A stretch of DNA of 64,000 nucleotides from the NCBI GenBank assembly GCA_963922205.1, contig CAWUHX010000028.1, positions 248,001 to 312,000 of the forward strand. The letters are read 5' to 3'. The translations under genes and the position numbers were made by a program. Origin of the DNA: Romanomermis culicivorax (Eukaryota > Nematoda > Enoplea > Mermithida > Mermithidae). The notes beneath the pieces were generated by a model. It ran no database searches. It was not told where the DNA came from and saw only the letters and a list, made by a program, of their open reading frames with translations. Positions 2,465 through 27,345 of the stretch are shown in pieces (position 1 is the stretch's first letter; each line of letters opens with the position of its first letter).

Positions 2465-3330
2465 GGGCTGCAAGGGTTTTCGACCATTGGGGATTTGATG
2501 GACGCGGTCACTTTACACGAAAAATTATCCCGGGTGTAAACAAGCGTATTTCCGTGATTTTTCAGTGGAGGGAGTTTTTGACCGCGGGGAATTCAATGAA
2601 TGTGATCACTTTACACAAAAAATTATTCCGTGTGTAAACAAGCGTATTTCCGTGACTTTTTGCTGGCAGGGGTTTTCGACCAGGGGGAATTTGATGAATG
2701 TGATCACTTTACACCAAAAATTATCCCGTGTGTAAACAAACGTATTTTTGTGATTTTTTGATGGAAGGGGTTTTCGACCATGGGGAATTTGATGAATGCG
2801 ATCACTTTACACAAAAACTTATCCCGGTTGTAAACAAACGTATTTTCGTGATTTTCCGGTGGGCTGGGTTTTCGATCACGGAGAATTTGATAAATGCAAT
2901 CATCTTACAAAAAAAAACTATCGCGGGTGTAAACAAGCGTATTTTCGTGATTTTTATGGAAGGGGTTTTCGAATGCGGGGAATTCAATGGATGTGTCACT
3001 TTACACAAAAAAATTCTTCCGGATTTAACCAAGCCTGTTTTCGTGAGTTTTTTGAGGGAGGGGTTTTGGACCACTGGGAATTTAATGAAAGTAGTCACTT
3101 TACACACTAATTCATATTGAGTGTAAACAAATGTATTTCTGCGATTTTTGAGGGAAAATGTTTCTGACCATGGGGAATTCAATGGACGGAGTCAGTTTAC
3201 ACGAAAAAAGTCATTTGTGTAAACAAAGGTATTTCTGCGATTTTTTGGGTTGAAGGATGCTAAACCATGAGGAATTCAATAGATATGGTCACCTTTCAGT
3301 ATCTTTACAACGTTTTTTAAGTACTATACG
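2465..3330 (+). repeat. 98-bp tandem array (about 9 units)
   Basis: GACC/GATC anchors recur at 2,482, 2,580, 2,678, 2,776 and 2,874, exactly 98 bp apart. Each unit runs through GGGAATTTGATGAATG, TCACTTTACACAAAAA, TTATCCCGGGTGTAAACAAG and CGTATTTCCGTGATTTTTTG. Units diverge from each other by substitutions and small indels. The open frames across the array only reflect that 98 is not a multiple of three and stops are rare in the unit; they are not genes. Confidence 0.92.
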
Positions 3331-5947: not shown

Positions 5948-7054
5948 TTGGAAGATGGAAAAGCATATACAGAAAATATAAATGGTGATCATACAATTGA
6001 ACAAGATGTGAAATATTGTTTATCAAAAATCATAACTGTTATATCCAAAGATTTGAAAGACAAAGAAGAACATTTTGACAAGATAAATCTCGCCAGAACA
6101 TGTGACAACAATTGTCAAATACCAAAAAATTGGGGTAAACATCTTCACACAGAAATTGGTAACTTGATTGATGAAAAGTTATCATTTTTTGAATTATGTA
6201 TGAAATTATTAGCTTGGCAAACCTGCCCACAGTGTCCTAAATGCCATGCCATCCATTCTGTAACAAAGGTAATCAGTGTCAAGATATGATCAAGTTTTTT
6301 CGAAAACTACAGCCTCATTTTTGTGGCATCCACACACTATTACGAAAAATTTACAAATTGATAGCTGGAAGCAATTGGTTGATGTAGATGGAAGCTGCTT
6401 AGATTTTGATGGATTATCCAGCATTTCACTCACTATTGTCAGAAAGAGAAAAAGATGAAGAAGAAAAAGAAGAAGAAGAAAATGAAACAGAAGAAAAAGA
6501 AACAATACCATCAAGTGAAATGGACAACTACATTATTGAAAAATTTGGAAATTTGTGGGCATTGCTTGACAAAGAATGTCATTCACAATTTTCCGAAAGA
6601 AAGTTGTCATATATGTCACATGTGGATCAAAGACAAGCAAGGACACACTTATAAAGATTGGAAAAAAATTCCTGGTCGACAGCTTAAAAATTCAATGGAA
6701 ATCATCAAAGATTTGGAAGGCACATGCACATTGCCAATGAAGATAGGCAATCGATGTATTGATGATTTTAAAGCAAACAGAGCTCCACGACTGTCCAAAT
6801 ACAACAATGTTTCAATCGATTCTGTACCTATGGAAATTTCAAGTTTGAGTATTTTTGAATTCATGATAATCAAATTCGCTCAAACATTTCAAACTGTAAT
6901 CAAGCTACAACCATTAACCAAAAACAATCAATTTGATGACTACATGTCAGCTTTAAAAGAAGTCACAGTTCATTTACCATTGCCATTGGAATCTATGCAT
7001 GAATATGTGCAAGATACATTACCATCGATGAAAAACTTGCCAAATTATGGTTGA
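5948..7054 (+). pseudogene. Helitron N-terminal region, decayed
   Basis: Overlapping fragments in shifting frames carry the cysteine-rich and conserved N-terminal part of Helitron replicases. A CPQCPKCHAI-type cysteine cluster lies at about 6,220-6,250. The later stretch (about 6,600-7,050) has CHICHMW, then IDDFKANRAPRLSKYNNVSI, then SLSIFEFMIIKFAQTFQTVI and KLQPLTKN, the order found upstream of the Rep domain in autonomous Helitrons. Several frame changes and stops, for example around 6,290 and 6,655, make it a pseudogene. A lysine/glutamate-rich low-complexity run at 6,450-6,510 lies inside. The family call is firm from the downstream domains; exact boundaries are not. Confidence 0.75.
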
Positions 7055-7850
7055 CTCTTGTTCGACTAATTTCAATATTGTTTTCCATGAATTGGTCAAT
7101 TTTGAAAATTGTTACAAAGCATTGAAAAAGCTCAAAGAAATTAATCCACTATACAAAGATGTCAAAGTCAACTATGATAGATTGAATATTTCCTGCAAAG
7201 ATTATGTTACAATTTTGGACAAAAAGAAAAAATTATTGCCTCAAGACAAGGTAAAGTCAATGTTAAAAGTTGCAAAAGATTGTGAAAAATATACCAGCAT
7301 CACTGTCAAAACAAACAAAGGAGACATGAATAAAGAATTGCTAGACACTGAAATATATCGAATGGAAAGAATCAACAACCATGCATTGAAATTGAAAGAT
7401 GAAGAATTGGATTTGAAATGTTACCCTGAACATCACCCATTTGGAAAAGGTGGATTATATTCAAAACGATATATTCATGTAAGGCCTGGTGACATTATAC
7501 AACATCATTTGCAAAATAAACATGCACAATTCAAAAGGAATACACAATGGATTTTAGATGAAATGAGCCAACTGCATGATCGAAACATAGAACAAGGAAT
7601 GTATGCAGTGATTAACACAGGCAAAGTCGAAGACATAGCAGCTGGTGATTTAATAAAAAAGATTGAAGCAAAAGACCAATACATGGAAGCCAATTTGAAT
7701 ACAATGTTTTCCAAAATTCGTGGAACAAAAGAATATTGGAGCAATGTTAACACTGATTTAAGGGCAACGGATGAAAATTTTGGCCCATGCACTTTTTTTT
7801 ACACTTAGTGCTGCAGAGTACAAGTGCAAAGACATGAAAGAGTGACTTTG
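7047..7850 (+). pseudogene. Helitron-like N domain (upstream of Rep)
   Basis: A 253-codon open stretch plus its continuation. It contains YPEHHPFGKGGLYSKR (the FP.LFP.GKGG-type motif of Helitron replicases), the segment around QFKRNTQWILDEMSQLHDRN, and then SKIRGTKEYWSNVNTDLRAT followed by NFGPCTFFYT, matching the Helitron_like_N domain layout. A stop at 7,806-7,808 interrupts just before the conserved LSAAEYKCKDM segment, which continues past it in the same frame. The protein would bind single-stranded transposon ends during rolling-circle transposition. Function is now lost. Confidence 0.85.
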
Positions 7851-15085: not shown

Positions 15086-15119
15086 TTAGTGTGGAAAATA
15101 TGCTCATTGATGAAAAAAT
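15086..15119 (+). pseudogene. Exon fragment split by the LTR element
   Basis: The short stretch between the Harbinger copy and the 5' LTR reads as the start of an exon (acceptor TTTCATTTAG once the Harbinger element is disregarded). It continues in frame into 24,396 onward beyond the 3' LTR, so the provirus interrupts an exon. Confidence 0.4.
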
Positions 15120-15713
15120 TGTAACGTACCTGCTAAAGCAGTACTGTAAATATGTAGCATACTGTATGTAATAGACATTTATTAAATATTATTAACTTTC
15201 ACATTTTATCGTCTCAAGGGTGTCTGGGATTCACACCCAAACATTCCTACAAAATTACGTGAAGTACTTTATTTTGATCCGTTCACACCCCGGTAGCCCA
15301 ATTAAGATGCCCTAATTAATTTGCACAAACGGCAGCTGTTCCCCTAGAACCTACACTAAACTACACATTCCACAGCTACCGTAATCCCCCGTAAAAATCG
15401 TAAACAACACCTGCACACAGTAAAATATGTAGAAGCCCCGCCGTACAGTAGTCTCAAGTGTAACAGTAGCGGCGGCCCCACAAAACATGTGTATACAGAG
15501 AAACCGATACAGGAAGCATGCACAGAAGCACAGAGGTGTGGCCAAGCCCACCGTAGAAAGCAGGTGAAGCACAGAAAGCATACGGTACCAGAAAAGCGTT
15601 AGAGAGGCGTAACTAAGAAAGCATAAAAAGCGTAGCAGGAAACGACCATTGGCGGAAGAAGATGGACAGAAGCTCGACCTCCCGCGACGCCCAGGGAGTG
15701 GCCAGAATCGCCG

Positions 15714-15720
15714 TATAAAA
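15714..15720 (+). promoter_or_regulatory. TATA box of the LTR promoter
   Basis: TATAAAA in the 5' LTR; the identical word is at 24,101-24,107 in the 3' LTR. Transcription would start about 30 bp downstream, near 15,745, which puts upstream open sequence outside the RNA. Confidence 0.7.
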
Positions 15721-15815
15721 GAAGAAGCAAAGCGTGATTTTGATCATTCTTATTCTTGTATCGTTCAACTTGTCAACCCCGCGCCCTTATTTGCAAGCAA
15801 CCGTCTTCGAAAGCA

Positions 15816-15821
15816 ATTAAA
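15816..15821 (+). promoter_or_regulatory. ATTAAA polyadenylation-type signal in LTR
   Basis: ATTAAA downstream of the TATA box, followed by a GTGTCGTGTATTTTGTT GT-rich stretch; in the 3' LTR it lies at 24,203-24,208, where it would direct 3' end formation. Confidence 0.45.
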
Positions 15822-16013
15822 CCGTGTCGTGTATTTTGTTATTTGCAAGCAACCACGCCGCCCCCGTTTTATTTTGTCGACGTTCAAGCGACCGTCGATT
15901 ACCTGTTGTTGTGTTGTAACCGTTCGCCCGCGCCCCGTCCCGTTTTGTCCCCGCCGTATCGACCGATTGGTTAGAAGTAAAGTACCTCACACAAATCTGG
16001 TCGTTACATATTT

Positions 16014-16031
16014 TGGTGACTGTACCGTTAC
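16014..16031 (+). other. Candidate primer binding site
   Basis: TGGTGACTGTACCGTTAC lies five bases after the 5' LTR. The leading TGG is expected for pairing with a tRNA 3' CCA end. I could not match the rest to a particular tRNA with confidence. Confidence 0.45.
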
Positions 16032-16251
16032 GTTAACCAGTGGAACTCCCTGCCCCCAATTAGGTGTACTCTTATCCGGGCGTTTAGAAGCATTAGATAA
16101 TACAGTAGTAATCATTTCCTACAGTAAGACAGTATTCGTAGAAAGCAAACTGGAAATCCCCTCCAACGAGACATTAAGCGATACATTTAAACGAATACAG
16201 CGTGAAGCAAAAATTGAAGCATTTAAGCAGAAATCCCATCGTAAACCAAGA

Positions 16252-18000
16252 ATGACCCACCAAACGCAAGATCATTTAGGAGAAATCGTTAGAGAACAGA
16301 TAAACGATTTATTTTCAGAACATTTTCGTACCCTACGTACACAATTGAATCAGAATACAGTAAACCCCACCCTAATAGACGATCTAAGAACAGCAAACAT
16401 TCGTAATAACATGGCAAACAATTTCTACGCGAAACCTACAGTATTCACGGGCGGCGTGACCCAACATTTTGGTGAATGGAACAAAAGATTAGAACAATTC
16501 ATGGCACTCCAAGGCATGAAAGATACAGACGTACAGTTAAAGTTGGCATGTTTAGAAATTCATTTAGGAGGAGCCGCGTTAGCAAAATTCAAAAGTTTAG
16601 CAAATTCCAAAAACCCTCCCCACACATACGAACAGTATAAAGTCGCATTACAGGCATTTTTCCCAAACAATAGAGATAATGAGCTACATCAACAATTTTT
16701 ACGCGAAAGAAAACAAAAGCGTTCAGAAACAGTAACGGAATTCTTATTTGATCTAGAACATCTCGCAACCCTCGCCTACCCTAACTTTAACACAGACGCA
16801 CGAGAAATGATCATAAAACCCCTCTTTGTAGAAGGCATGCAAAACGAAATCAGGGAAGCAATTAAGTATAGAAGGTTCGCAACTCTAAAAGAAATGTCAG
16901 ACGAAGCAGCTTACATTGAACAGCAAATTCTTAGAAATGAGTTAAAATCTAACGTCCTTCCCTTCATACCCCCAAAACCCGAACCTATCTTTTCCCTAAC
17001 CAAAAGCACAGACCAACAGGATCTTTTGCATCAGTTAGAACAACAAGTAAAAGATTTACAGTTGCAGATCAAACAAAAACCCCAACCCCCACGACAGAGT
17101 AGCTACAACAATTTCAGTAACAATACTTCCAGCAGGAATAATGCTTACAGAAACAATACCACCCCCAGGCAACCCACATGCTTCCAGTGTGGACAAATAG
17201 GACACGTAGCTCGTAATTGTAAATCAGTAGGCACCCGAAAATCATGTGAAATCTGTTTCCGTAATAATCACAGTACACGTGATTGTAAAAGCCCATGCAT
17301 CCACTGCTCCCAAAAAGGACATAGATCAGATAACTGCCCTTCAAAACCCTACTCCAATTTCCAATGTTTTCTATGCAAGCAGAGAGGTCATACAAGCAGG
17401 TATTGTCCAAATCAGCAGAGTCGTAATATTCAAAATTGCATTGAGTACAGGCAACCCCAACTCCTCATGGACATTGACGACCCCGCATTTTACTCAAAAT
17501 TACCAGCCATAACTAACGGCCCTCAGACTACTTTAGGAACTATCATGCCCAACACCCACCGCCGCAGTGACGAATACGTCCTTGATCTGGACGTACCCGA
17601 TTGGTGCGCCATGTCACCACCCCCCACGCCTGAAGCCGCAAAAATCGAAAAATCGCCGCCCACCATCCCCATAGGCTACAAGATCCCCCGAAAGCAAGAC
17701 ACAACGCCGCCCACCGCCCCCGAAACCCCATCGAAAACAGGTCGCAACTTATTGTCCCTCTTACACGGCCTGACCCCTGAACCCTACCAATTCCGCCCCC
17801 GCCAAACATTGCTACCGACCCCCACAAGTAAGCAAGTCCAAACCCCATCCCATAACTCAAATTCCAAACTTTTACAGAATGTTCAGATTGCAAACCAGCC
17901 ACCCCCTCAACCCAAAACCGAACAACACCAAGAGCCGCCACGTCAAACCGGCCAGAACGAAAATATACAGTACCCCGCCGCCTCCACTAAACCACTACAT
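16252..18000 (+). CDS. gag: Gag of the LTR element, with four zinc knuckles
   Basis: Capsid/nucleocapsid part of the polyprotein. The start is taken at ATG 16,252, the first ATG in any frame downstream of the TATA box, giving Gag about 580 residues before the Env-like part. A retrotransposon capsid domain lies at about residues 60-230 (FGEWNKRLEQFMALQG, then EFLFDLEHLATLAYPN). A glutamine/asparagine-rich linker follows, then four CX2CX4HX4C zinc knuckles at residues 310-395: CFQCGQIGHVARNC, CEICFRNNHSTRDC, CIHCSQKGHRSDNC and CFLCKQRGHTSRYC. After these comes a long proline-rich segment (about residues 440-580). The frame is open in all of gag. The same frame continues into the Env-like region without a stop, which is unusual. 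The frame also extends upstream to 15,649 through the LTR, but there is no ATG there. Confidence 0.9.
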
Positions 18001-19740
18001 TGGCCATTGTATTGTATATTTTTATGTATAATAATCCCCACATCGTGTAGTGCCCAATTTCAGATGTGTGGAACTTCATTGAGCGGTCACTCAGTCAGCA
18101 TACCAAAACTTGTATCATGCATGCCCCCTTCCACAGTAGACAAACCCGTACAAACATTCGGAAAAATCTATATCCCCTCCACTAAGCCCCACATTACAGA
18201 CGCATACAAATGCAGTGTTCGCAAACGCAAAATTTGTACTAATACAGGATTTTTTGGATCAAAAGGTATTGTCTTCGACCAAACCGAAATGCAAAATCTA
18301 ACCCCACATGTTTGTAAGGCAATCGTTATAGACAAAGAACACAATGGTCAAAAATTATACGAAACCCAACCAGGGTTTTGGTCAACAAATAACTCCCTAA
18401 GCGTAGAATACACATGGTGTTGTACAGACCATTGTACCTCGGTCACTAACGTCATCATAGAAATAGGACAAATAGCATCTTGGAATGGAAAATCTATGAC
18501 AGGTACATTAGGCGACCTGGGGTCATGCAAACCGACATCAGGCCATTGTGTCACAGCCGATGGATCCATTATCTGGAATGAAACAGCATTTGAAAACTTA
18601 TGTCCTTTCGAATACAAAAATACACATCCCATCAAACTCACGCAAACACACATGATAATAGAAGAGCTACAAGGTGCATTCTCGGTTAAAAATACAGTTT
18701 TTTAGAACCCCAATTGCCCAGAAATCCAAGACAGCATTCTAACCGAACAAGGCATTATTGTACAATTAGACAAAAGCACACCACATCGTAACGCATTTTT
18801 AACCCCAAAAACCAACGAAACTCATACTACACTATACGATTATGATGATTTTGAACCCATCAATGCAAAACTAAACTATCTAACAGACAAAATACAGGAA
18901 TTCGAAATTCAAAATTTCAAAAATGTATGGAGTGAATTATGCAGACAGGCACAGCGTCACCTTGATCTCATATGGCAAATTTTACGTCTTGATGCAACCC
19001 TTGGAGCACGTGCATTCCTACAGAGAACCGACATCATAGCAGAATTTACAGGAGAAGCCCTCACAGTCTGGCCCTGTAAACAAGTAAATGCATCTAAAAT
19101 CTTTTACAACCACAAAATCAACCAAACATGCTACAAACTCTTACCCATTCTAGTAGGAACCGAACTCATGTTTTCAAATCCAGGAGGCAACGATTTGACC
19201 CCTTTTTCGCAAACCGTTGACTGCCATCACATGCATATAGCCCTTTACAAACAGAATAATACATGGGTAAGTGAAACAGGATCCCCGCATGTCACAAATT
19301 TACCTTTAGAAATCATCTGGAACCAAAATTTCTCCCTTTTTCATTTTAATACACCCACCATTTTTCATGATCAACTTGCAACTATTTCAACCAACTTACT
19401 CTTTTTGAAACAATACATTTACAAAACTCACACACTAGAAAACATTGTCAAAAAACTCGTCAATTACACCGCCCAAATGTCTCTCAATTCCGATACAGTT
19501 TACAACATGATCTCAGGCACTGGCCAAGCACTCGGAAATACACTCTCTGGCGCTGGTCAAGGCATAGAACATGTAATTACCGGTACCACCCAAAGTCTCA
19601 CAGACGGATTAAACAATTTACTCAAAGGACCCCTGCAAATCATTATAAATCTAGCCGTTATTACTGTAGTTATTGCAGGCATCTTTTATTCCTTTCTCGT
19701 CCTTCGAAAATATTTCCCCTCTCCAAAACACCATGCTACA
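18001..19740 (+). CDS. env: Env-like membrane glycoprotein placed between gag and pol, interrupted by one TAG
   Basis: In the same frame as gag. A hydrophobic segment, WPLYCIFLCIIIPTSCSAQF, at 18,001-18,060 looks like an internal signal peptide with a small-residue cleavage site. A cysteine-rich ectodomain with N-x-S/T sites follows to about 19,630. Then comes a strong membrane anchor, around LAVITVVIAGIFYSFLVL at about 19,650-19,705, followed by a basic, presumably cytoplasmic tail that passes into the protease region. Spacing of the cysteines and aromatic residues (AYKCSVRKRKICTNTGFFG) recalls class III fusion glycoproteins of rhabdovirus/chuvirus type, which have been captured by other LTR elements; that is inference. 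A TAG at 18,703-18,705 divides it, and the frame is open on both sides. The stop may be inactivating or a readthrough stop. Confidence 0.72.
18703..18705 (+). other. Single in-frame TAG inside the Env-like region
   Basis: This is the only stop between 15,649 and 23,475 in this frame. The sequence is TTT TTT TAG AAC. Bases 18,706-19,167 after it are open in the same frame, so the two long open stretches are one frame broken once. Confidence 0.95.
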
Positions 19741-22700
19741 AACGAACATGCATACGAAATACCATCAAACAACAGACATTTACATGAGACCATTCCCCCA
19801 TCATTCGGCCATGCTCTCTTAGAATTAGCTAATCGTCGTGGGGCACACACACAGCAGAAATACGTCCTTGTCGATATTGATACCCCCCGAACCCCTGCAA
19901 TCGAACTCATTAATCAAATTCAGCAATCTGCATCAAATAAGCCACCCCAAAATGTACCTGACAAACATACCCCTCACATTCCAATCACACTTAACGGCAA
20001 ATTAATGACAAAAGGCATGATTGACACTGGTGCAGTCTACTCCCTCATTGATTCCCAAGTCGCGCAAGTTTTACAATTAGACATGAAACCCCCGCTAGTC
20101 CAAGCAAAAGCAGCAAATAATCTCCCGATTCACTTTGTAGGGACCACTTTTGTCACAGTGACAGCCCAAACAATCCAGGAAACAATCATGGTCCATGTCC
20201 AAAAAGATTGCACAGCAGACATCCTTCTAGGCAAAAACTTTCTCAGTCGATTTTCAGAATACACTATCAACAATCAAAAGTCACAGGTCAAATTTGGCAA
20301 TGTTATACTACCCTGTGATGGCCTAGAATATAGCCCTCTTTCAACTCGTGGTGGAACTTATTTGGATGAGAAATTAGAATTACCACCCCATACAGTAACC
20401 GAATTTACTGTCCCCTTGCCCAAATCGTACTTACAGGTCAAACAGCTTGAATTCACCCCAAAACCCAAACAGAATCCCAAAGTCCATTTCGCAGCTTGTA
20501 TCTCAGAAAACCAAAACAGTCGCATACGTATATCCGTCCTAAACACGCAAGAAACAGCTCAAATTCTTTACCCTGGAACATGCATAGGCACAGTCTCTTG
20601 TTACATCCCAAAACAAAATGCTCCTGCTAATCTAACCCTTTCAACGCAAAACCAGCCCAACCGTTTTGATACATTCACATGGTTAAAAGAAAATGTCAAT
20701 TTAACCTCCAGTGACCTCACAGAAGCAGAAAAAACGCAACTCCTACACGCCCTATCGAAGTACCCTACATTATATGCTAAATCCAAAATGGACGTAGGCA
20801 GAACCACCCTCGTTTCACATACAATTGACACCAATGGCTCCCAACCTGTACGTAGACAACTTTATCGGACTTCCCCAAAAGAAAAGCAAATCATACAAGC
20901 AGAAGTTGAGCAACTCGCAGCAGCAGGTGTCATAAGCCAAAGCAATTCTCCATGGTGTACCAACACAGTTTTAGTTCCCAAAAAAGATGGAGGCCATCGT
21001 TTATGCATTGATTTTCGAGGCCTCAACAAAGTCACAAAAAAAGATACCTACCCCTTGCCCCGGATAGACGAAATTCTAGACACCCTCCGTGGAATGAAAT
21101 ATTTTACGTCCCTTGACCAATCCAATGCATATTATTCCATTCCCATAGCACAAGCAGACAGAGAAAAAACTGCATTCAATTGCTCAGCCGGCCAGTATCA
21201 ATTCAATTACCTCCCCTTTGGACTCACCAATGCCCCAGCCACATTCCAAAGGTTAATGGATGTTATTTTTTCGGGTCTGCAATGGAACACATGCCTTGTG
21301 TATCTCGACGATGTTTTGGTATTCGCAGACTCCCATGCCCAAATGCTGGAACGTTTAGACACTATTCTTGCCCGATTCTCACAAGCGGGCCTTAAGCTAA
21401 ACATACAAAAATGCAAGTTCTGCCAGCCCCAAGTCCAATACTTAGGCCACGTCATTTCCCAGCAAGGCATTTCACCAGATCCCCATAAGGTACAGGCCAT
21501 CTATGACATACCCACACCCAAAAGCTCAAAAGAAGTTAAGTCATTCCTTGGCCTACCCTCATATTATCGCAGATTCATCCCAAATTGCTCTCAAGTTTCT
21601 AGCCCACTCACATCGCTACTCAAAAAGAACTCAGAATTTTCCTGGGGCCCTGAACAGCAAAATGCATTCACTAAGCTAAAAGAATTACTCCTTCATGCCC
21701 CAATACTGCAGCACCCCGATTTCACAAAACCGTTTATTCTGCAAACCGACGCCTCAAAACTCGGAATTGGCGCCATTCTCAGTCAACTCGATACTAAAGG
21801 TCAGGACCGCCCCATTGCTTTTGGGAGCCGCACATTGAAACCCGCAGAACGCAACTATCCGATCACTGAGTTAGAAACCCTTGCAGTAGTCGAATTTGTC
21901 AAGTATTTCCACCCCTATCTTTTCCAGCAACATGTTATTGTACACACTGACCACACAGCAGTTCAGGCAGTCTTACAAAAGGAAAACCCGTCCCCTCGCA
22001 TTGCCCGTTGGGGATTAGCCCTCTCTGGTATTCAGCTCGACATTCGACCTAAGAAAGGCACTGCTAACCGCAACGCAGATGCAGTTTCTCGATTCCCCTC
22101 ACAGACAGCAAAGCAATCCTTTGATATTGAGCAATTAGAAACCCGTCCCGAAATATCCACCATCAATTCTGTTCTTGAGGCTGAAGCAACTGAACAAGAA
22201 GAGCAGCAGAAAAACTTCGCCGAACTCCAACGCACTGATCCAACTGTCAAAAGCATATTAGCAAAAATCGCCCAAAAACACCCCCTCACTCTGATCAAAT
22301 TCGCAGTGCATCAAAACATTCTCTTCCGTATAGTCGACAAACAGGCAAAACTATACATTCCCAAGTCGCAAGTCCAGCACCTGATCGCCTCACATCATGA
22401 CAGCAAGTTCACAGGTCATTTTGCGGCCAGGAAAACTTTACACTTGCTCCGACAAAAATATTTTTGGCCCCAAATGAGCCGTGATATCACACGTTACTGC
22501 AAAACTTGCCACCCTTGCCAGACACAGAAAGCCCTCAGACACAAAGTACATGCACATTTGGTACCAATTCAGCCGACTGGTCCCTTTGATCGAGTTGGTG
22601 TTGATTGCATGGGACCATTACCCCTCACAGAAGACGACAACCGATTCATTGTTGTTTTCATCGATTATTTCACAAAGTATGTAGAGGCATTCCCGACCCC

Positions 22701-23475
22701 TGACATCACTGCAGCCACTATTGCCAAGCTATTCGTAACCAAAATCGTTTGTCGTCATGGGTCCCCAAAAATCATCCATTGTGATCGTGGCACCGACTTC
22801 GTATCCGATCTTTTCTCACGGATCACCAGTTTATGCAACACTCAGAAAATTCATACCACCCCATACCATCCCATTGCCAATGGGGAAGTTGAGCGTTGCA
22901 ACCAAACCCTAGCCACCCGTATCCGCATGTACATCAATTCAAATCACACTGATTGGGATACTTATCTCCCGTACGCCGTTTTTTCGATCAACATTCATAA
23001 AAATGATAGCACATCATATCCCCCATTTGAATTACTCCACGGTAGACAAGCTAATCTGCCGTCAGACGCAGCCTTAAACTTTTTCCCCACGTCCTACATG
23101 GTTGATTTAGACGATTACGCCCTTCGTGTAAAATCACATTTCACAGAAGCACTCTCAACCGTGCAGAAAAGTTTGCAAAAAGCCCAAGCCCACTATACCC
23201 GTCAGTATAACAAGCATGCTCAGAACATACATTACAAGGCAGGTGATCTTATTCTCTACAAAAATCATTCGTGTAAACAAGGGCTGACTCCCAAATTCCT
23301 CCCTCGCCAAAATGGACCCTATACAGTTACAAATTTCATGTACCCCAACGTTACACTCAAACACCCCCATAAGAATAGTACATTTACCGTGCATGTAAAC
23401 GAGACAACCCCTTTCTACCCTCGAACAGCAACTATCGAATCTACCCCCACCCCTCCTCAACCTCGAAAGCCTTGA
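19741..23475 (+). CDS. pol: Pol of Ty3/gypsy element: protease, RT, RNase H, integrase
   Basis: Continues in the frame of the Env-like region with no stop or shift, ending at TGA 23,473-23,475. Domains in order: retropepsin (GMIDTGAVYSLIDS, about 20,017-20,058); RT (VLVPKKDGGHRLCIDFRGLN near 20,970-21,030, PFGLTNAPATFQ, and catalytic YLDD at 21,301-21,312); RNase H (QTDASKLGIGAILSQ near 21,740, then ELETLAVVEF and VHTDHTAV); integrase zinc finger HH-CC (HH at 22,391-22,396, CKTCHPC at 22,498-22,518); integrase core D-D-E (GVDCMGP, HCDRGTDF, NGEVERCNQ, with the last at about 22,876). A C-terminal GPY/F-like segment near 23,300-23,340 (RQNGPYTV) supports Ty3/gypsy (Metaviridae). All catalytic residues I can check are present. 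The enzyme set would copy the RNA and integrate the DNA. Confidence 0.95.
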   Translation, partial: NEHAYEIPSNNRHLHETIPPSFGHALLELANRRGAHTQQKYVLVDIDTPRTPAIELINQIQQSASNKPPQNVPDKHTPHIPITLNGKLMTKGMIDTGAVYSLIDSQVAQVLQLDMKPPLVQAKAANNLPIHFVGTTFVTVTAQTIQETIMVHVQKDCTADILLGKNFLSRFSEYTINNQKSQVKFGNVILPCDGLEYSPLSTRGGTYLDEKLELPPHTVTEFTVPLPKSYLQVKQLEFTPKPKQNPKVHFAACISENQNSRIRISVLNTQETAQILYPGTCIGTVSCYIPKQNAPANLTLSTQNQPNRFDTFTWLKENVNLTSSDLTEAEKTQLLHALSKYPTLYAKSKMDVGRTTLVSHTIDTNGSQPVRRQLYRTSPKEKQIIQAEVEQLAAAGVISQSNSPWCTNTVLVPKKDGGHRLCIDFRGLNKVTKKDTYPLPRIDEILDTLRGMKYFTSLDQSNAYYSIPIAQADREKTAFNCSAGQYQFNYLPFGLTNAPATFQRLMDVIFSGLQWNTCLVYLDDVLVFADSHAQMLERLDTILARFSQAGLKLNIQKCKFCQPQVQYLGHVISQQGISPDPHKVQAIYDIPTPKSSKEVKSFLGLPSYYRRFIPNCSQVSSPLTSLLKKNSEFSWGPEQQNAFTKLKELLLHAPILQHPDFTKPFILQTDASKLGIGAILSQLDTKGQDRPIAFGSRTLKPAERNYPITELETLAVVEFVKYFHPYLFQQHVIVHTDHTAVQAVLQKENPSPRIARWGLALSGIQLDIRPKKGTANRNADAVSRFPSQTAKQSFDIEQLETRPEISTINSVLEAEATEQEEQQKNFAELQRTDPTVKSILAKIAQKHPLTLIKFAVHQNILFRIVDKQAKLYIPKSQVQHLIASHHDSKFTGHFAARKTLHLLRQKYFWPQMSRDITRYCKTCHPCQTQKALRHKVHAHLVPIQPTGPFDRVGVDCMGPLPLTEDDNRFIVVFIDYFTKYVEAFPTPDITAATIAKLFVTKIVCRHGSPKIIHCDRGTDFVSDLFSRITSLCNTQKIHTTPYHPIANGEVERCNQTLATRIRMYINSNHTDWDTYLPYAVFSINIHKNDSTSYPPFELLHGRQANLPSDAALNFFPTSYMVDLDDYALRVKSHFTEALSTVQKSLQKAQAHYTRQYNKHAQNIHYKAGDLILYKNHSCKQGLTPKFLPRQNGPYTVTNFMYPNVTLKHPHKNSTFTVHVNETTPFYPRTATIESTPTPPQPRKP

Positions 23476-23490
23476 ACGAGGACGTTCAAC

Positions 23491-23506
23491 TCCGGAAGGA
23501 GGGAAA
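23491..23506 (+). other. Polypurine tract
   Basis: Purine-rich CTCCGGAAGGAGGGAAA immediately precedes TGTAACG of the 3' LTR, the normal place for the plus-strand primer. Confidence 0.75.
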
Positions 23507-24395
23507 TGTAACGTACCTGCTAAAGCAGTACTGTAAATATGTAGCATACTGTATGTAATAGACATTTATTAAATATTATTAACTTTCACATTTTATCGTC
23601 TCAAGGGTGTCTGGGATTCACACCCAAACATTCCTACAAAATTACGTGAAGTACTTTATTTTGATCTGTTCACACCCCGGTAGCCCAATTAAGATGCCCT
23701 AATTAATTTGCACAAACGGCAGCTGTTCCCCTAGAACCTACACTAAACTACACATTCCACAGCTACCGTAATCCCCCGTAAAAATCGTAAACAACACCTG
23801 CACACAGTAAAATATGTAGAAGCCCCGCCGTACAGTAGTCTCAAGTGTAACAGTAGCCGCGGCCCCACAAAACATGTGTATACAGAGAAACCGATACAGG
23901 AAGCATGCACAGAAGCACAGAGGTGTGGCCAAGCCCACCGTAGAAAGCAGGTGAAGCACAGAAAGCATACGGTACCAGAAAAGCGTTAGAGAGGCGTAAC
24001 TAAGAAAGCATAAAAAGCGTAGCAGGAAACGACGATTGGCGGAAGAAGATGGACAGAAGCTCGACCTCCCGCGACGCCCAGGGAGTGGCCAGAATCGCCG
24101 TATAAAAGAAGAAGCAAAGCGTGATTTTGATCATTCTTATTCTTGTATCGTTCAACTTGTCGACCCCGCGCCCTTATTTGCAAGCAACCGTCTTCAAAAG
24201 CAATTAAACCGTGTCGTGTATTTTGTTATTTGCAAGCAACCACGCCGCCCCCGTTTTATTTTGTCGACGTTCAAGCGACCGTCGATTACCCGTTGTTGTG
24301 TTGTAACCGTTCGCCCGCGCCCCGTCCCGTTTTGTCCCCGCCGTATCGACCGATTGGTTAGAAGTAAAGTACCTCACACAAATCTGGTCGTTACA
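23507..24395 (+). repeat. 3' LTR (889 bp)
   Basis: Matches 15,120-16,008 along its whole length with six substitutions, for example GATCTG/GATCCG near 23,666 and GACGATTGG/GACCATTGG near 24,034. It ends CGTTACA and is followed by TATTCAAT. No duplicated target site matches the bases before the 5' LTR (GAAAAAAT). Confidence 0.97.
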
Positions 24396-25960
24396 TATTC
24401 AATAAGGCAAAAAACAAGAAGAAACCATTCAAAAAAGCCTTTGTTATGCAAGGATACTGTGTTGGTATGAGGGTTTGAATTTTCTAGAATTTTTTACAGC
24501 CATGAAATAAATGGTGCTATGATACGGAAATTACCATATAAATATGAAGCTTCTGATGTTCAGAAATTATTGGATAAAGCAGGTGTTATAGCAGAGTCAA
24601 TTACAGTAATTATGTGAAACTTTGGAATTCCAACTGGAACTGCATGAGTTTCTTTACCAAATAATTATAAGGTTTGCAACTTCAATTGCTCATGATTTTT
24701 ACAAGGCCAAAAAAGTGACTACATTTCAAATTTTCAATATTTACATCTTTCTCAAGTGCGAGTATCTTCTGATGCATGTGCTATGGGATGACAGAACTTT
24801 GTGATTGTCCCTGGCTGTACTGTGTCAGTAATTGATTTTTGTAAATTTGTCATCCTCAGTTTGGTCATTTTGAACATGTCGTTGATGCTGCATTGCTTGT
24901 TAAATTTTGTGCACAAAAACAAGTTGAACATCATGGGCTGAGCATGAGATACATTATGGTGAGATTTACATCATTTTGCTTTGAACTCTTCTAGTGGTCT
25001 TTTTTTTATTTTAAGCACTGCAAAAATTATCTTTGTTATTACAAGGATAAACAAGAAGCCTATAAACAAGAAATTGAAAAAAGTGGATTAACCATGGAAA
25101 AAAGTCCATGCATTAGGGATCCGGTGCATTACCAATAAAATTCGAATTTCAAATGTAAGTATGTAAATGTGTATTTCTATGTCTAATATTAAATTAAAAA
25201 TTCTGCTAGTAGAAAACCCTTTTCTACATTGTATTTCCATACATTTACTAGATACCTGACGACGGTGCCAATGATTATGGTCGGATGTTGAAGAACCTCG
25301 GTGTGCTTAGAATTTACTTTTGTGATTTGATTGAAACAAATCAAATGTCTTCCAATATTTATGCTCAGTTTCTGAGCTTCTATGATGCTGAAGAAGTTGC
25401 TTCTATGTTGAACAATCAAAAATATGTCTATGTGGGCAAAATGATTAAGCTTAAAGTTCAGGTGGTAAGAAGTGGCTCAATTGTATTTGATTACTGTGAA
25501 CAGATTATTGTTAATGTTGCTCTTTTAAGGATGAATCCCCTAGACCGGTTTGGGCGTGCAAGTATGATATTCCTGAACAATTGAAAATGTTTGGCTTCGG
25601 TGGTTCAGGTTCAAATCGAAGGTTGCCTAACACTTTTAAAACTTTTATTCATGAAATTAATTTGAATTAAATTTAGGCGACCAATGGAAGGTGATGCCAT
25701 AGAAAAGGTCGATCAATTGGAATTTATTTCATTTGGCGTTCCTTATTTTATTCATGTTCATTTGAATTGTGTTTGTTTGTTAGTTCATTTGGTTGGAAAA
25801 ATGCAACTATGTATTCAGCCTGGAAAGGGCGTTTATCAGATTTGCTGTGCTCCAAAATTTCCATTATTTCAATTTAAAAGTAAGAAACTGAGTTCAGAAG
25901 CTAATAGTTACATTTTAAAACATCTGTATCTTCTCATTATTTCACACAATTTGGATTAAT
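24396..25960 (+). pseudogene. Remnant exons of the same unidentified gene, 3' part
   Basis: Beyond the 3' LTR the interrupted exon continues (FKKAFVMQGYCVGM) to a donor-like AGG|GTTTGA. Further exon-like stretches follow: HEINGAMIRKLPYKYEASDV near 24,503-24,560; FGHFEHVVDAALLVKFCAQK near 24,860-24,920; a 99-codon open stretch at 25,285-25,584 containing NYAQFLSFYDAEE-like sequence (read as IYAQFLSFYDAEEVASMLNN); and FGFGGSGSNRRLPNTFKTFI near 25,593-25,650. The last two change frame between them. Codon-like composition and short introns suggest a former gene. I do not recognise the family. Interruptions make it non-functional here unless spliced around. Confidence 0.35.
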
Positions 25961-26440: not shown

Positions 26441-27345
26441 AGTGTTATCTGATTATCCTGAGTGTAGACAAAAGTATTTCAATGGTCTTATTGGGGAACA
26501 GCCTTTCGACTATTGGAAATTCAATGGATAAAGTCACTTTACACAAGAAATCATCCCGAACAAGCATATTTTCGTGATTTTTATACTTACATGGTCTTTT
26601 AGGCGAAGGGGTTTTCAACTACTATTTTTTCGTTGGCAATGCAATAGATGTGGTCATTTTTTTACACAAAAAAATATTCAAAGTGGAAACAAGCGTATAT
26701 AAGTGGATTTTTCATGGAAGGAGTTTTTGACCTGAGGGAGTTCAATAGGTACAGACACTTTACACCAAAAAAATCTCAGGTGTAAACAAGCATATTTCCG
26801 TGACTTTTTGGTGGAAGGAATTTTGGACTGTAAGTAATTCAATACATGCCGTCACTTTACTTTAAAAATTTATCCTGAATGTAAAATAAGTCCATGATCT
26901 TTTGGGGGAAGAATTTTTTGACTATTCAGAATTTCATGGATGCAGTCACTACACAAAAAATTATCCCGCATGTAAACAAGCATATTTTCGTGATTTTTTG
27001 TTGGAAAATGTTTTCCACTGCAGGGAATTAAATGGATGCGATCACTTTACACATAAAATTATCCGGGGAGTAAACTATCGTATTTCCATGATTTATTTTT
27101 GAAAGGAGTTTTGGACTGCAGGTAGTTCAATAAATGTCATCATTTTACATAAAAAATTATCCTGGGTGTAAACAAGTGCATTTTTGTAATTTTTTGATGG
27201 AAGGAGATTTCGACCGTGAGGACTCCAGTAGATGCAGTCACTTTACACAAAAAATATCCTAAGTGTAAACAAGCATATTAACTTTTTGGTGGAAAGAGTT
27301 TTTGACTGCAAGGAATTCAATACATGCATTCTTTTTACATTGAAA
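26441..27345 (+). repeat. 98-bp tandem array, third block (direct)
   Basis: About nine diverged units with the same words: TCACTTTACACAAAAAATTA, TGTAAACAAGCATATTTTCG and GGAATTCAATACATGC. Confidence 0.88.

What the first reader, a model, noticed from the sequence alone, without database searches (positions are those of the whole stretch)
16252..23475. LTR element with an Env-like glycoprotein between Gag and Pol in one frame
Seen: one reading frame runs from four-knuckle Gag through a signal peptide, a cysteine-rich ectodomain and a membrane anchor into protease-RT-RNase H-integrase. Known: env-bearing Ty3/gypsy elements and retroviruses place env 3' of pol and express it from a spliced RNA. 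Inference: here the glycoprotein would be made as an internal part of the polyprotein, needing an internal signal peptide, cleavage on both sides, and a way to keep Gag and Pol cytosolic while Env enters the ER. It could be a distinct lineage with a non-canonical expression strategy.
Basis: partly seen in the sequence, partly recalled or inferred. Interest (0 to 1): 0.88.

Follow-up and report, generated by a model that had tools for sequence, protein, structure and literature searches.

The report
Retroelement family with envelope inside Gag-Pol
A very abundant family of virus-like jumping genes in what is probably an invertebrate genome carries its membrane-fusion (envelope) gene in the middle of its main protein, between the shell part and the enzyme part, instead of at the end as known retroviruses do, and related families share this layout, which points to an unusual way of making a virus envelope.

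Summary
The window holds a Ty3/gypsy-type LTR element (15120-24395). One frame runs from Gag with four zinc knuckles through a signal-peptide-like segment, a cysteine-rich glycoprotein and a membrane anchor into protease-RT-RNase H-integrase. The glycoprotein's C-terminal half matches Pfam Monjiviricetes_fusion (class III type; E 6e-19). This copy has one in-frame stop (18703) inside the glycoprotein, absent from 38 of 38 aligned copies.

The order is a lineage trait. In this genome 39 of 40 fetched copies carry the full glycoprotein in the same place. Sixteen of 16 further loci, from at least five families counting the window's own, show gag-env-protease order. Of 68 glycoprotein matches, 13 lie in open frames of 2000 codons or more. 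Four database proteins of 2293-2499 aa have the same order. dN/dS is 0.09 (Gag), 0.13 and 0.07 (Env halves), 0.06 (RT).

Best reading: Env is an internal two-pass membrane module of a Gag-Env-Pol polyprotein. Layout and selection are shown; expression is inferred. Splicing is the main rival and is not excluded.

The parts
15120..16008 (+). 5' LTR, 889 bp, starts TGTAACG, ends CGTTACA
   Evidence: blastn of the two ends, 6 differences within the LTR; termini confirmed by flanks of other copies
16014..16031 (+). primer-binding-site-like stretch beginning TGG (position by analogy, tRNA not identified)
   Evidence: sequence read directly; inference
16252..17460 (+). Gag: capsid region and four CCHC knuckles (about 17179-17406)
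   Evidence: Pfam Retrotrans_gag 6.7e-6, zf-CCHC 1.9e-9; motif scan; dN/dS 0.09 over 16432-17160
17461..17994 (+). linker between knuckles and signal peptide, same frame
   Evidence: no Pfam match; in-frame dN/dS 0.36 for 17461-18000, 0.58 for 17761-17997
17995..18054 (+). signal-peptide-like hydrophobic segment, possible cleavage after the Ala at 18052-18054
   Evidence: hydropathy with a 15-residue window, alignment with relatives; the cleavage site is judged by a recalled rule
18055..19638 (+). Env ectodomain: 16 conserved cysteine columns and one sequon conserved in 7 of 7 rows
   Evidence: dN/dS EnvA 0.13, EnvB 0.07
18703..18705 (+). in-frame TAG, private to this copy among those examined
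   Evidence: stop there in 0 of 38 aligned copies
18814..19353 (+). match to PF24664 Monjiviricetes_fusion (profile 296-469 of 653)
   Evidence: E 6.2e-19, 67.8 bits, cut-off 27
19639..19695 (+). membrane anchor
   Evidence: hydropathy 2.42 over 19 residues
19981..20250 (+). aspartic protease
   Evidence: PF13975 2.2e-9
20974..21456 (+). reverse transcriptase
   Evidence: PF00078 3.3e-39; nearest solved relative Ty3, E 1e-94
21643..22026 (+). RNase H
   Evidence: PF17919 and PF17917
22357..22872 (+). integrase: H2C2 zinc finger and rve core
   Evidence: PF17921 2.6e-21, PF00665 1.6e-8
23494..23506 (+). polypurine tract just before the 3' LTR
   Evidence: sequence read directly; inference
23507..24395 (+). 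3' LTR
   Evidence: no target-site duplication around this copy

Best explanation
This is one member of a high-copy lineage of Ty3/gypsy LTR elements whose envelope is an internal module of a single Gag-Env-Pol polyprotein. Shown: the order LTR, Gag, signal-peptide-like segment, class III-type glycoprotein, anchor, protease, RT, RNase H, integrase, LTR; one open frame across both junctions in many copies and in at least three families of this genome; purifying selection on the glycoprotein; mobility, with 4-bp target duplications. Inferred: ribosomes translate Gag in the cytosol; the internal signal peptide then docks the chain at the ER; the ectodomain enters the lumen and is folded and glycosylated; the anchor stops transfer; and Pol is made back in the cytosol. 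Signal peptidase would free the luminal N-terminus of Env, and the element's own protease would cut Gag off upstream and Pol off downstream on the cytosolic side. This is the two-pass logic of alphavirus and flavivirus structural polyproteins (recalled). Assembly would then take place at a membrane that already holds Env in fixed ratio to Gag.
For: Same order in 39 of 40 fetched copies of the family, in 16 of 16 PF24664 loci from at least five families (all five main pieces in one frame in 10 of 16, with at most one stop in 8 of 16), and in single-ORF proteins P0030, P0039, P0051 and P0062. Of 68 PF24664 matches in the genome, 13 lie in open frames of 2000 codons or more. dN/dS in the same 20 copies plus the window: Gag 0.09, EnvA 0.13, EnvB 0.07, RT 0.06. 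Shared versus private changes in 40 copies: EnvA p 3e-4, EnvB p 8e-8. Linker from anchor to protease: dN/dS 0.15 in frame against above 2 in the other frames. No 2A (NPGP) motif in the window ORFs or eight relatives. No in-frame Met within 130 codons upstream of the signal peptide in the window and L126, none within 40 in P0051 and P0062. A profile built from six relatives alone matches the window pieces at E 4e-75 and 5e-124 (E for a search of two sequences).
Against: No RNA or protein evidence. Splicing is not excluded: the best-scoring donor/acceptor pair around Env is in frame in 7 of 8 loci, that is 3 of 4 families examined. The Gag-side linker is only weakly constrained (dN/dS 0.58, with 0.73 in one wrong frame), and in the L114 family locus a stop lies in that linker. 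Some relatives have a Met close to the signal peptide: P0039 at 11 and 21 residues, P0030 at 22, L114 at 13 and 18, so separate initiation is possible there. P0014 begins at the start of the Env ectodomain and P0010 inside Env; what lies upstream of them was not seen. Six of 16 further loci have frameshifts. Two relatives (P0005, P0045) lack the fusion domain. Structure could not be predicted. This copy is broken.
Confidence: 0.7

Rival explanations
1. Splicing separates the products. Either Env is made from a subgenomic RNA that borrows a 5' start codon, as in errantiviruses, or Env is removed as an in-frame intron to give Gag-Pol.
For: In the window family the best donor in the linker (17828, CAA|GTAAGC) and acceptors 19678 and 19822 are in frame; GT..AG is kept in 38 and 36 of 39 copies. 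Both sites as good arise in 11 of 400 shuffles. The top pair is also in frame in the L113 and L112 families. Errantivirus env is known to be spliced (PMC12992720, passages).
Against: The sites do not lie at equivalent places in other families and are mostly weaker, one acceptor falls within the Env piece itself (L113 family), and the top pair is out of frame in L114. Most GT..AG are expected to persist in a family about 95% identical. Splicing alone would not need the frame to stay open across both junctions in families with 58-71% RT identity. The splice weights are recalled, approximate values.
Confidence: 0.25
2. The glycoprotein is no longer used for entry but serves inside the cell, for example anchoring Gag-Pol to a membrane. 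(Not exclusive with the polyprotein reading.)
For: Two relatives, P0005 and P0045, keep a signal-peptide-like and an anchor-like segment between the knuckles and protease but no fusion domain.
Against: Ectodomain dN/dS 0.07-0.13, like Gag and RT; 16 conserved cysteine columns and a sequon in 7 of 7 rows. A mere anchor would not need these.
Confidence: 0.1
3. A one-off insertion of a viral or host gene into this copy.
For: None found.
Against: Present in 39 of 40 copies of the family and in all 16 loci of at least five families.
Confidence: 0.01
4. Chance open frame or assembly artefact.
For: The window copy has one stop and no target-site duplication.
Against: Frame-specific stop counts, dN/dS, and perfect 4-bp target duplications in 8 of 8 evaluable copies of 10 fetched.
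Confidence: 0.01

Closest known systems
Errantivirus / insect ERV (gypsy, ZAM; Metaviridae)
   Same: Ty3/gypsy pol and LTR structure, with a captured viral fusion protein
   Different: There env is a third ORF with an F-type protein made from a spliced RNA (PMC12992720, passages read); here it is class III-type and lies between Gag and protease
Env-carrying gypsy elements across metazoans (Chary and Hayashi 2025, eLife 108449)
   Same: Envelope-carrying gypsy elements; type III fusion glycoproteins are mentioned for gypsy in PMC13172572 (passages)
   Different: The paper is not held; I could not check whether it reports any env between gag and pol
Anakin (mosquito BEL/Pao with chuvirus glycoprotein)
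   Same: An LTR element that captured a chuvirus-type glycoprotein (PMC7642597, passages)
   Different: BEL/Pao pol, whereas this RT is nearest Ty3. The order in Anakin is not stated in the passages seen; the paper's introduction puts env downstream in Roo, Tas and Cer-7. PMC10084718 (passages) found no clear capture by Gypsy
Cer1 (C. elegans Ty3/gypsy)
   Same: Gag and Pol without a stop between them (PMC10309623, abstract and passages)
   Different: Its extra ORF (CERV) is 3' of pol, spliced and not a fusion protein
Alphavirus and flavivirus polyproteins (recalled, not searched)
   Same: Capsid and glycoproteins in one chain with internal signal sequences, so cytosolic and luminal parts are made together
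   Different: Positive-strand RNA viruses; no reverse transcription and no integration

Membership tests
Metaviridae (Ty3/gypsy) | LTRs with TG..CA ends and short target duplications | tested here: met
   TG..CA; 4-bp duplication in 8 of 8 evaluable copies out of 10 fetched, none in the window copy
Metaviridae (Ty3/gypsy) | PR-RT-RNase H-IN order | tested here: met
Metaviridae (Ty3/gypsy) | RT nearest Ty3 | tested here: met
   among solved structures 7q5b/4ol8 (Ty3) E about 1e-94, against 1e-62 for the next non-Ty3 chain and about 1e-41 for the chains after it; no tree with named reference lineages was made
Errantivirus | env as third ORF 3' of pol | tested here: not met
   31 bases between the pol stop and the LTR; Env lies between Gag and PR
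Errantivirus | F-type (baculovirus-like) envelope | tested here: not met
   best match PF24664; no furin-like R.[KR]R site in either window ORF
Anakin-type BEL/Pao element | BEL/Pao pol | tested here: not met
   RT nearest Ty3
Retroviridae | gag-pol-env order with spliced env | tested here: not met
   order is gag-env-pol; splicing itself not testable without RNA
Class III viral fusion proteins | profile match over curated cut-off | tested here: met
   67.8 bits against cut-off 27 for EnvB; EnvA alone has no Pfam match. In PDB the Env profiles give only weak matches: A1 to a herpesvirus gB (E 0.0075), A2 to chain 9cu4, named 'ORF8' (E 0.0085; that this is a herpesvirus gB is recalled)
Class III viral fusion proteins | class III fold | not testable with these tools
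   structure prediction not available
Single gag-env-pol lineage | monophyly on RT | tested here: inconclusive
   9 env-bearing rows plus P0005 form one clade, SH-aLRT 98; P0051 and P0062 fall nearby; one clade of all not rejected, p-AU 0.273 and 0.538

The most novel reading that the evidence does not exclude
A previously undescribed body plan for reverse-transcribing elements: gag-env-pol as one polyprotein that is threaded through the ER membrane during synthesis, so that every Gag is made with an Env. It is carried by a lineage of Ty3/gypsy elements with a class III fusogen that has diversified into several families within one genome, with relatives in unnamed contigs.
Probability: 0.58. 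Interest if true: 0.9.

Novelty: new variant of a known kind. Interest (0 to 1): 0.82.

Why it matters
Retroviruses and env-bearing LTR elements are taught as gag-pol-env with env on a spliced RNA. A lineage that keeps the fusogen inside the polyprotein would show that envelope acquisition can occur at another place in the genome and can be expressed without splicing. It would fix the Env to Gag ratio and could place assembly at a secretory membrane. It is also a naturally replicated system, with several families in one host, for asking how a retroelement becomes enveloped and how it loses the envelope again (P0005, P0045).

Tried and rejected
One-off capture and chance were rejected by the copy and family counts and by frame-specific statistics. 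2A-type separation: no NPGP in the window ORFs or the eight relatives scanned. An in-frame Env intron was looked for by sequence: a fair pair exists in the window family; in other families the best sites lie elsewhere, though in frame in 3 of 4 families, so it is not rejected, only less favoured. On re-checking I moved the odds slightly for this reason (best reading 0.72 to 0.70, splicing 0.22 to 0.25, novel case 0.60 to 0.58).

Searches that found nothing: protein search with the C-terminal Env region of P0002; protein search with the Env part of 18706-20700, which covers only proteins of about 366-1163 aa and so no polyproteins; viral contigs with the Env alignment; Rfam on the window; PHROGs on both Env pieces. 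NCBIfam gave nothing for the Env pieces and only chance-level matches elsewhere. The exogenous virus group from which Env came was not determined.

Print searches for this kind of element. I saw no gag-env-pol LTR element in their listings, but only open-licence PMC papers are held, I read only passages of a few, and eLife 108449 was not readable. I therefore make no claim that it is absent from print.
Full report
Element. The window lies in contig C28 of a 359-Mb assembly. A COX1-like stretch of that assembly reads by the invertebrate mitochondrial code with one stop, after the first three codons of the stretch translated, so the host is probably an invertebrate; the species is unknown. The element runs 15120-24395, with 889-bp LTRs that differ at 6 positions and have inverted TGTAACG/CGTTACA ends. 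Ten other copies were fetched at both ends; 8 were evaluable, and 8 of 8 have a perfect 4-bp target-site duplication. The window copy has none, so its LTR divergence should not be used as an age.

Coding content. ORF listing and translation give one frame with a single stop, TAG at 18703. Pfam on pieces: zf-CCHC and Retrotrans_gag; nothing for the linker or the N-terminal Env piece; Monjiviricetes_fusion (PF24664) at 67.8 bits for the C-terminal Env piece, with sub-threshold bornavirus G and herpesvirus gB matches; then aspartic protease, RVT_1, RNase H, Integrase_H2C2 and rve. RT is nearest Ty3 among solved structures.

Copies in the genome. The integrase piece and the C-terminal Env piece each gave 40 of 40 scored matches, out of 1126 and 1124 candidates. 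I fetched 20 of the 39 non-self Env hits and 20 of the 39 non-self integrase hits, in the latter case mostly leaving out loci already on the Env list. All 20 of the first set and 19 of 20 of the second carry full Env between Gag and protease; the exception, L039, begins at window position 18958. The stop at 18703 occurs in 0 of 38 copies where the codon aligns. Over 17461-20086, 25 of 39 copies have no in-frame stop (indels not counted). Gag lies upstream and RT downstream at the expected distance in 20 of 20 of the Env-chosen copies. The LTR start (24 bases, up to 2 mismatches) occurs 2443 times, with 0 for the control. Among the first 100 listed, 23 of 36 spacings under 14 kb are 8.3-8.5 kb and none is 6.2-7.2 kb, the size expected without Env.

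Selection. In the same 20 copies plus the window, dN/dS is 0.09 (Gag capsid), 0.13 (EnvA), 0.07 (EnvB) and 0.06 (RT). In the copies chosen on integrase (19 of 20 evaluable) EnvA is 0.20 and EnvB 0.12. With 40 copies (39 others and the window), EnvA is 0.17 and EnvB 0.10, and shared changes are far less often amino-acid changing than private ones (EnvA 9:26 against 60:36, p 3e-4; EnvB 11:64 against 73:70, p 8e-8). RT shows the same contrast (0:43 against 46:72, p 6e-8); Gag capsid does not reach significance (5:16 against 23:43, p 0.43). The linker from anchor to protease has 0.15 in frame and 2.36 and 2.12 out of frame. The C half of the linker from Gag to signal peptide has 0.58 in frame against 1.26 and 0.73, which is weak. 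Pairs are not independent, so these are descriptive.

Other families in the genome. PF24664 gave 68 scored matches of 2320 candidates, all 68 over the cut-off; 13 of 68 lie in open frames of at least 2000 codons. I fetched 16 of these 68 and compared them with pieces of the window element. All 16 have gag upstream, then both Env pieces, then protease (partial in L117), and 15 of 16 show RT in the piece. The pieces found share one frame in 10 of 16; the other six have frameshifts. Eight of 16 have at most one stop in that frame over about 1690 codons, against 85 or more in each other frame. They fall into at least five groups by identity to the window (EnvB about 91-97, 59-61, 54, 45 and 39%; RT about 94-98, 69-71, 67, 58-59 and 48%), the window's own family included. 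In L114 the one stop lies in the linker between gag and Env, so an unbroken run from gag to Env is shown for at least three of the five groups, not for all. Three loci scanned in parts show PF24664 over its cut-off and RVT_1 in all three; protease matches are below the curated cut-offs in all three and weak in L114; CCHC was seen in L113, no gag family in L119, and the gag part of L114 was not scanned.

Relatives elsewhere. An RT-region search gave 5592 hits, of which 120 were listed; 6 of 120 carry PF24664. P0030, P0039, P0051 and P0062 are single ORFs of 2293-2499 aa with Gag-type features (Ty3_capsid below its cut-off in P0030, Retrotrans_gag in P0039, and a CCHC motif in each of the four), then PF24664, protease, RT, RNase H and IN. 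P0010 starts inside Env and P0014 at the start of the ectodomain and ends after RNase H; what lies upstream of them was not seen. Their sources are unnamed contigs of about 6-10 kb. A profile from these six alone matches the window's two Env pieces at E 4e-75 and 5e-124 (E for two sequences). Sixteen cysteine columns and one sequon are conserved; sequon density in Env is not higher than in Gag or integrase, so it gives no separate support for luminal exposure. Of 38 proteins with both knuckles and RT, 12 have a hydrophobic segment between knuckles and RT; in six of these there are two segments upstream of protease (the four with Env, plus P0005 and P0045), while the other six have one after the protease motif.

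Phylogeny. On RT-RNase H, with 46 rows (42 of the 119 rows of the first tree, plus four host families), the window and eight other env-bearing rows group with P0005 (SH-aLRT 98). P0051 and P0062 fall in a neighbouring group. One clade of all env-bearing rows plus P0005 is not rejected (p-AU 0.273; 0.538 with 42 rows). One gain with later losses is possible but not shown. P0005 sits inside the env clade, which suggests loss of the ectodomain.

Mechanism. No start codon lies close upstream of the signal peptide in the window and L126 (nearest 132-137 codons), P0051 or P0062 (45 or more), but P0039, P0030 and L114 have one within 11-22 residues. There is no 2A motif. The simplest expression is therefore continuous translation with co-translational insertion of Env. 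Cleavage by signal peptidase and by the element's protease, and assembly at a membrane, are inferences from known biology of retroviral and alphavirus polyproteins (recalled). Splicing was examined by sequence only: the best-scoring pair around Env is in frame in 7 of 8 loci (3 of 4 families; one third expected by chance for each family), but not at equivalent places, and mostly weaker than in the window family. It remains open.

Known work. Passages of PMC12992720 (spliced F-type env), PMC7642597 and PMC10084718 (chuvirus glycoproteins; capture by BEL/Pao, no clear capture by Gypsy), PMC13172572 (type III fusion glycoproteins in gypsy), PMC10309623 (Cer1; also its abstract), PMC11952523 (small fusogen-like ORFs upstream of gag or downstream of pol), PMC5408684 (rotifer ORF3s) and PMC12859917, and the outline and first part of PMC12440569, were seen. 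The passages I saw do not describe env between gag and protease. Chary and Hayashi 2025 was not readable, and it is the most likely place for a prior report.

Noticed in passing
P0005 (residues 509-588) and P0045 (631-693); no window counterpart: Two relatives keep a signal-peptide-like and an anchor-like segment only 42 and 25 residues apart between the zinc knuckles and protease, with no fusion domain: possible relics of Env loss, or small membrane modules.
   Followed up: partly
window 15105-15119 and 24396-24410: The window copy has no target-site duplication although 8 of 8 other evaluable copies have a perfect 4-bp one; recombination between copies or a flank rearrangement is likely.
   Followed up: partly
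window 20311-20700; L114 3354-5174: Weak dUTPase-type matches between protease and RT (PF04797 E 0.034; PF22769 E 0.007 in L114); no PDB match of note for the window piece (best E 0.84).
   Followed up: partly
window 2474-3245 and 26661-27339: Two minisatellite arrays about 24 kb apart with similar 98-base units.
   Followed up: no
window 6455-7054: An ORF with a DUF6570 match (E 2.7e-6), next to an ORF at 7047-7808 with no Pfam match; not identified.
   Followed up: no
G000 contig C180 positions 404, 8769, 17134; contig C2 2949890-2966692: Env matches spaced exactly 8365 bases, and LTR starts spaced 8401 bases twice, point to tandem elements that share LTRs.
   Followed up: no
G000 contig C117 992573-993922 (L109): A COX1-like sequence in a 1-Mb contig that reads by mitochondrial code 5 with one stop near the start of the stretch translated: a nuclear mitochondrial insert or a misassembly.
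   Followed up: partly
L114 (G000 C150), linker between gag and Env: In the most distant host family examined, one stop lies between gag and Env while the frame from Env onwards is open; whether other members share it was not checked.
   Followed up: no
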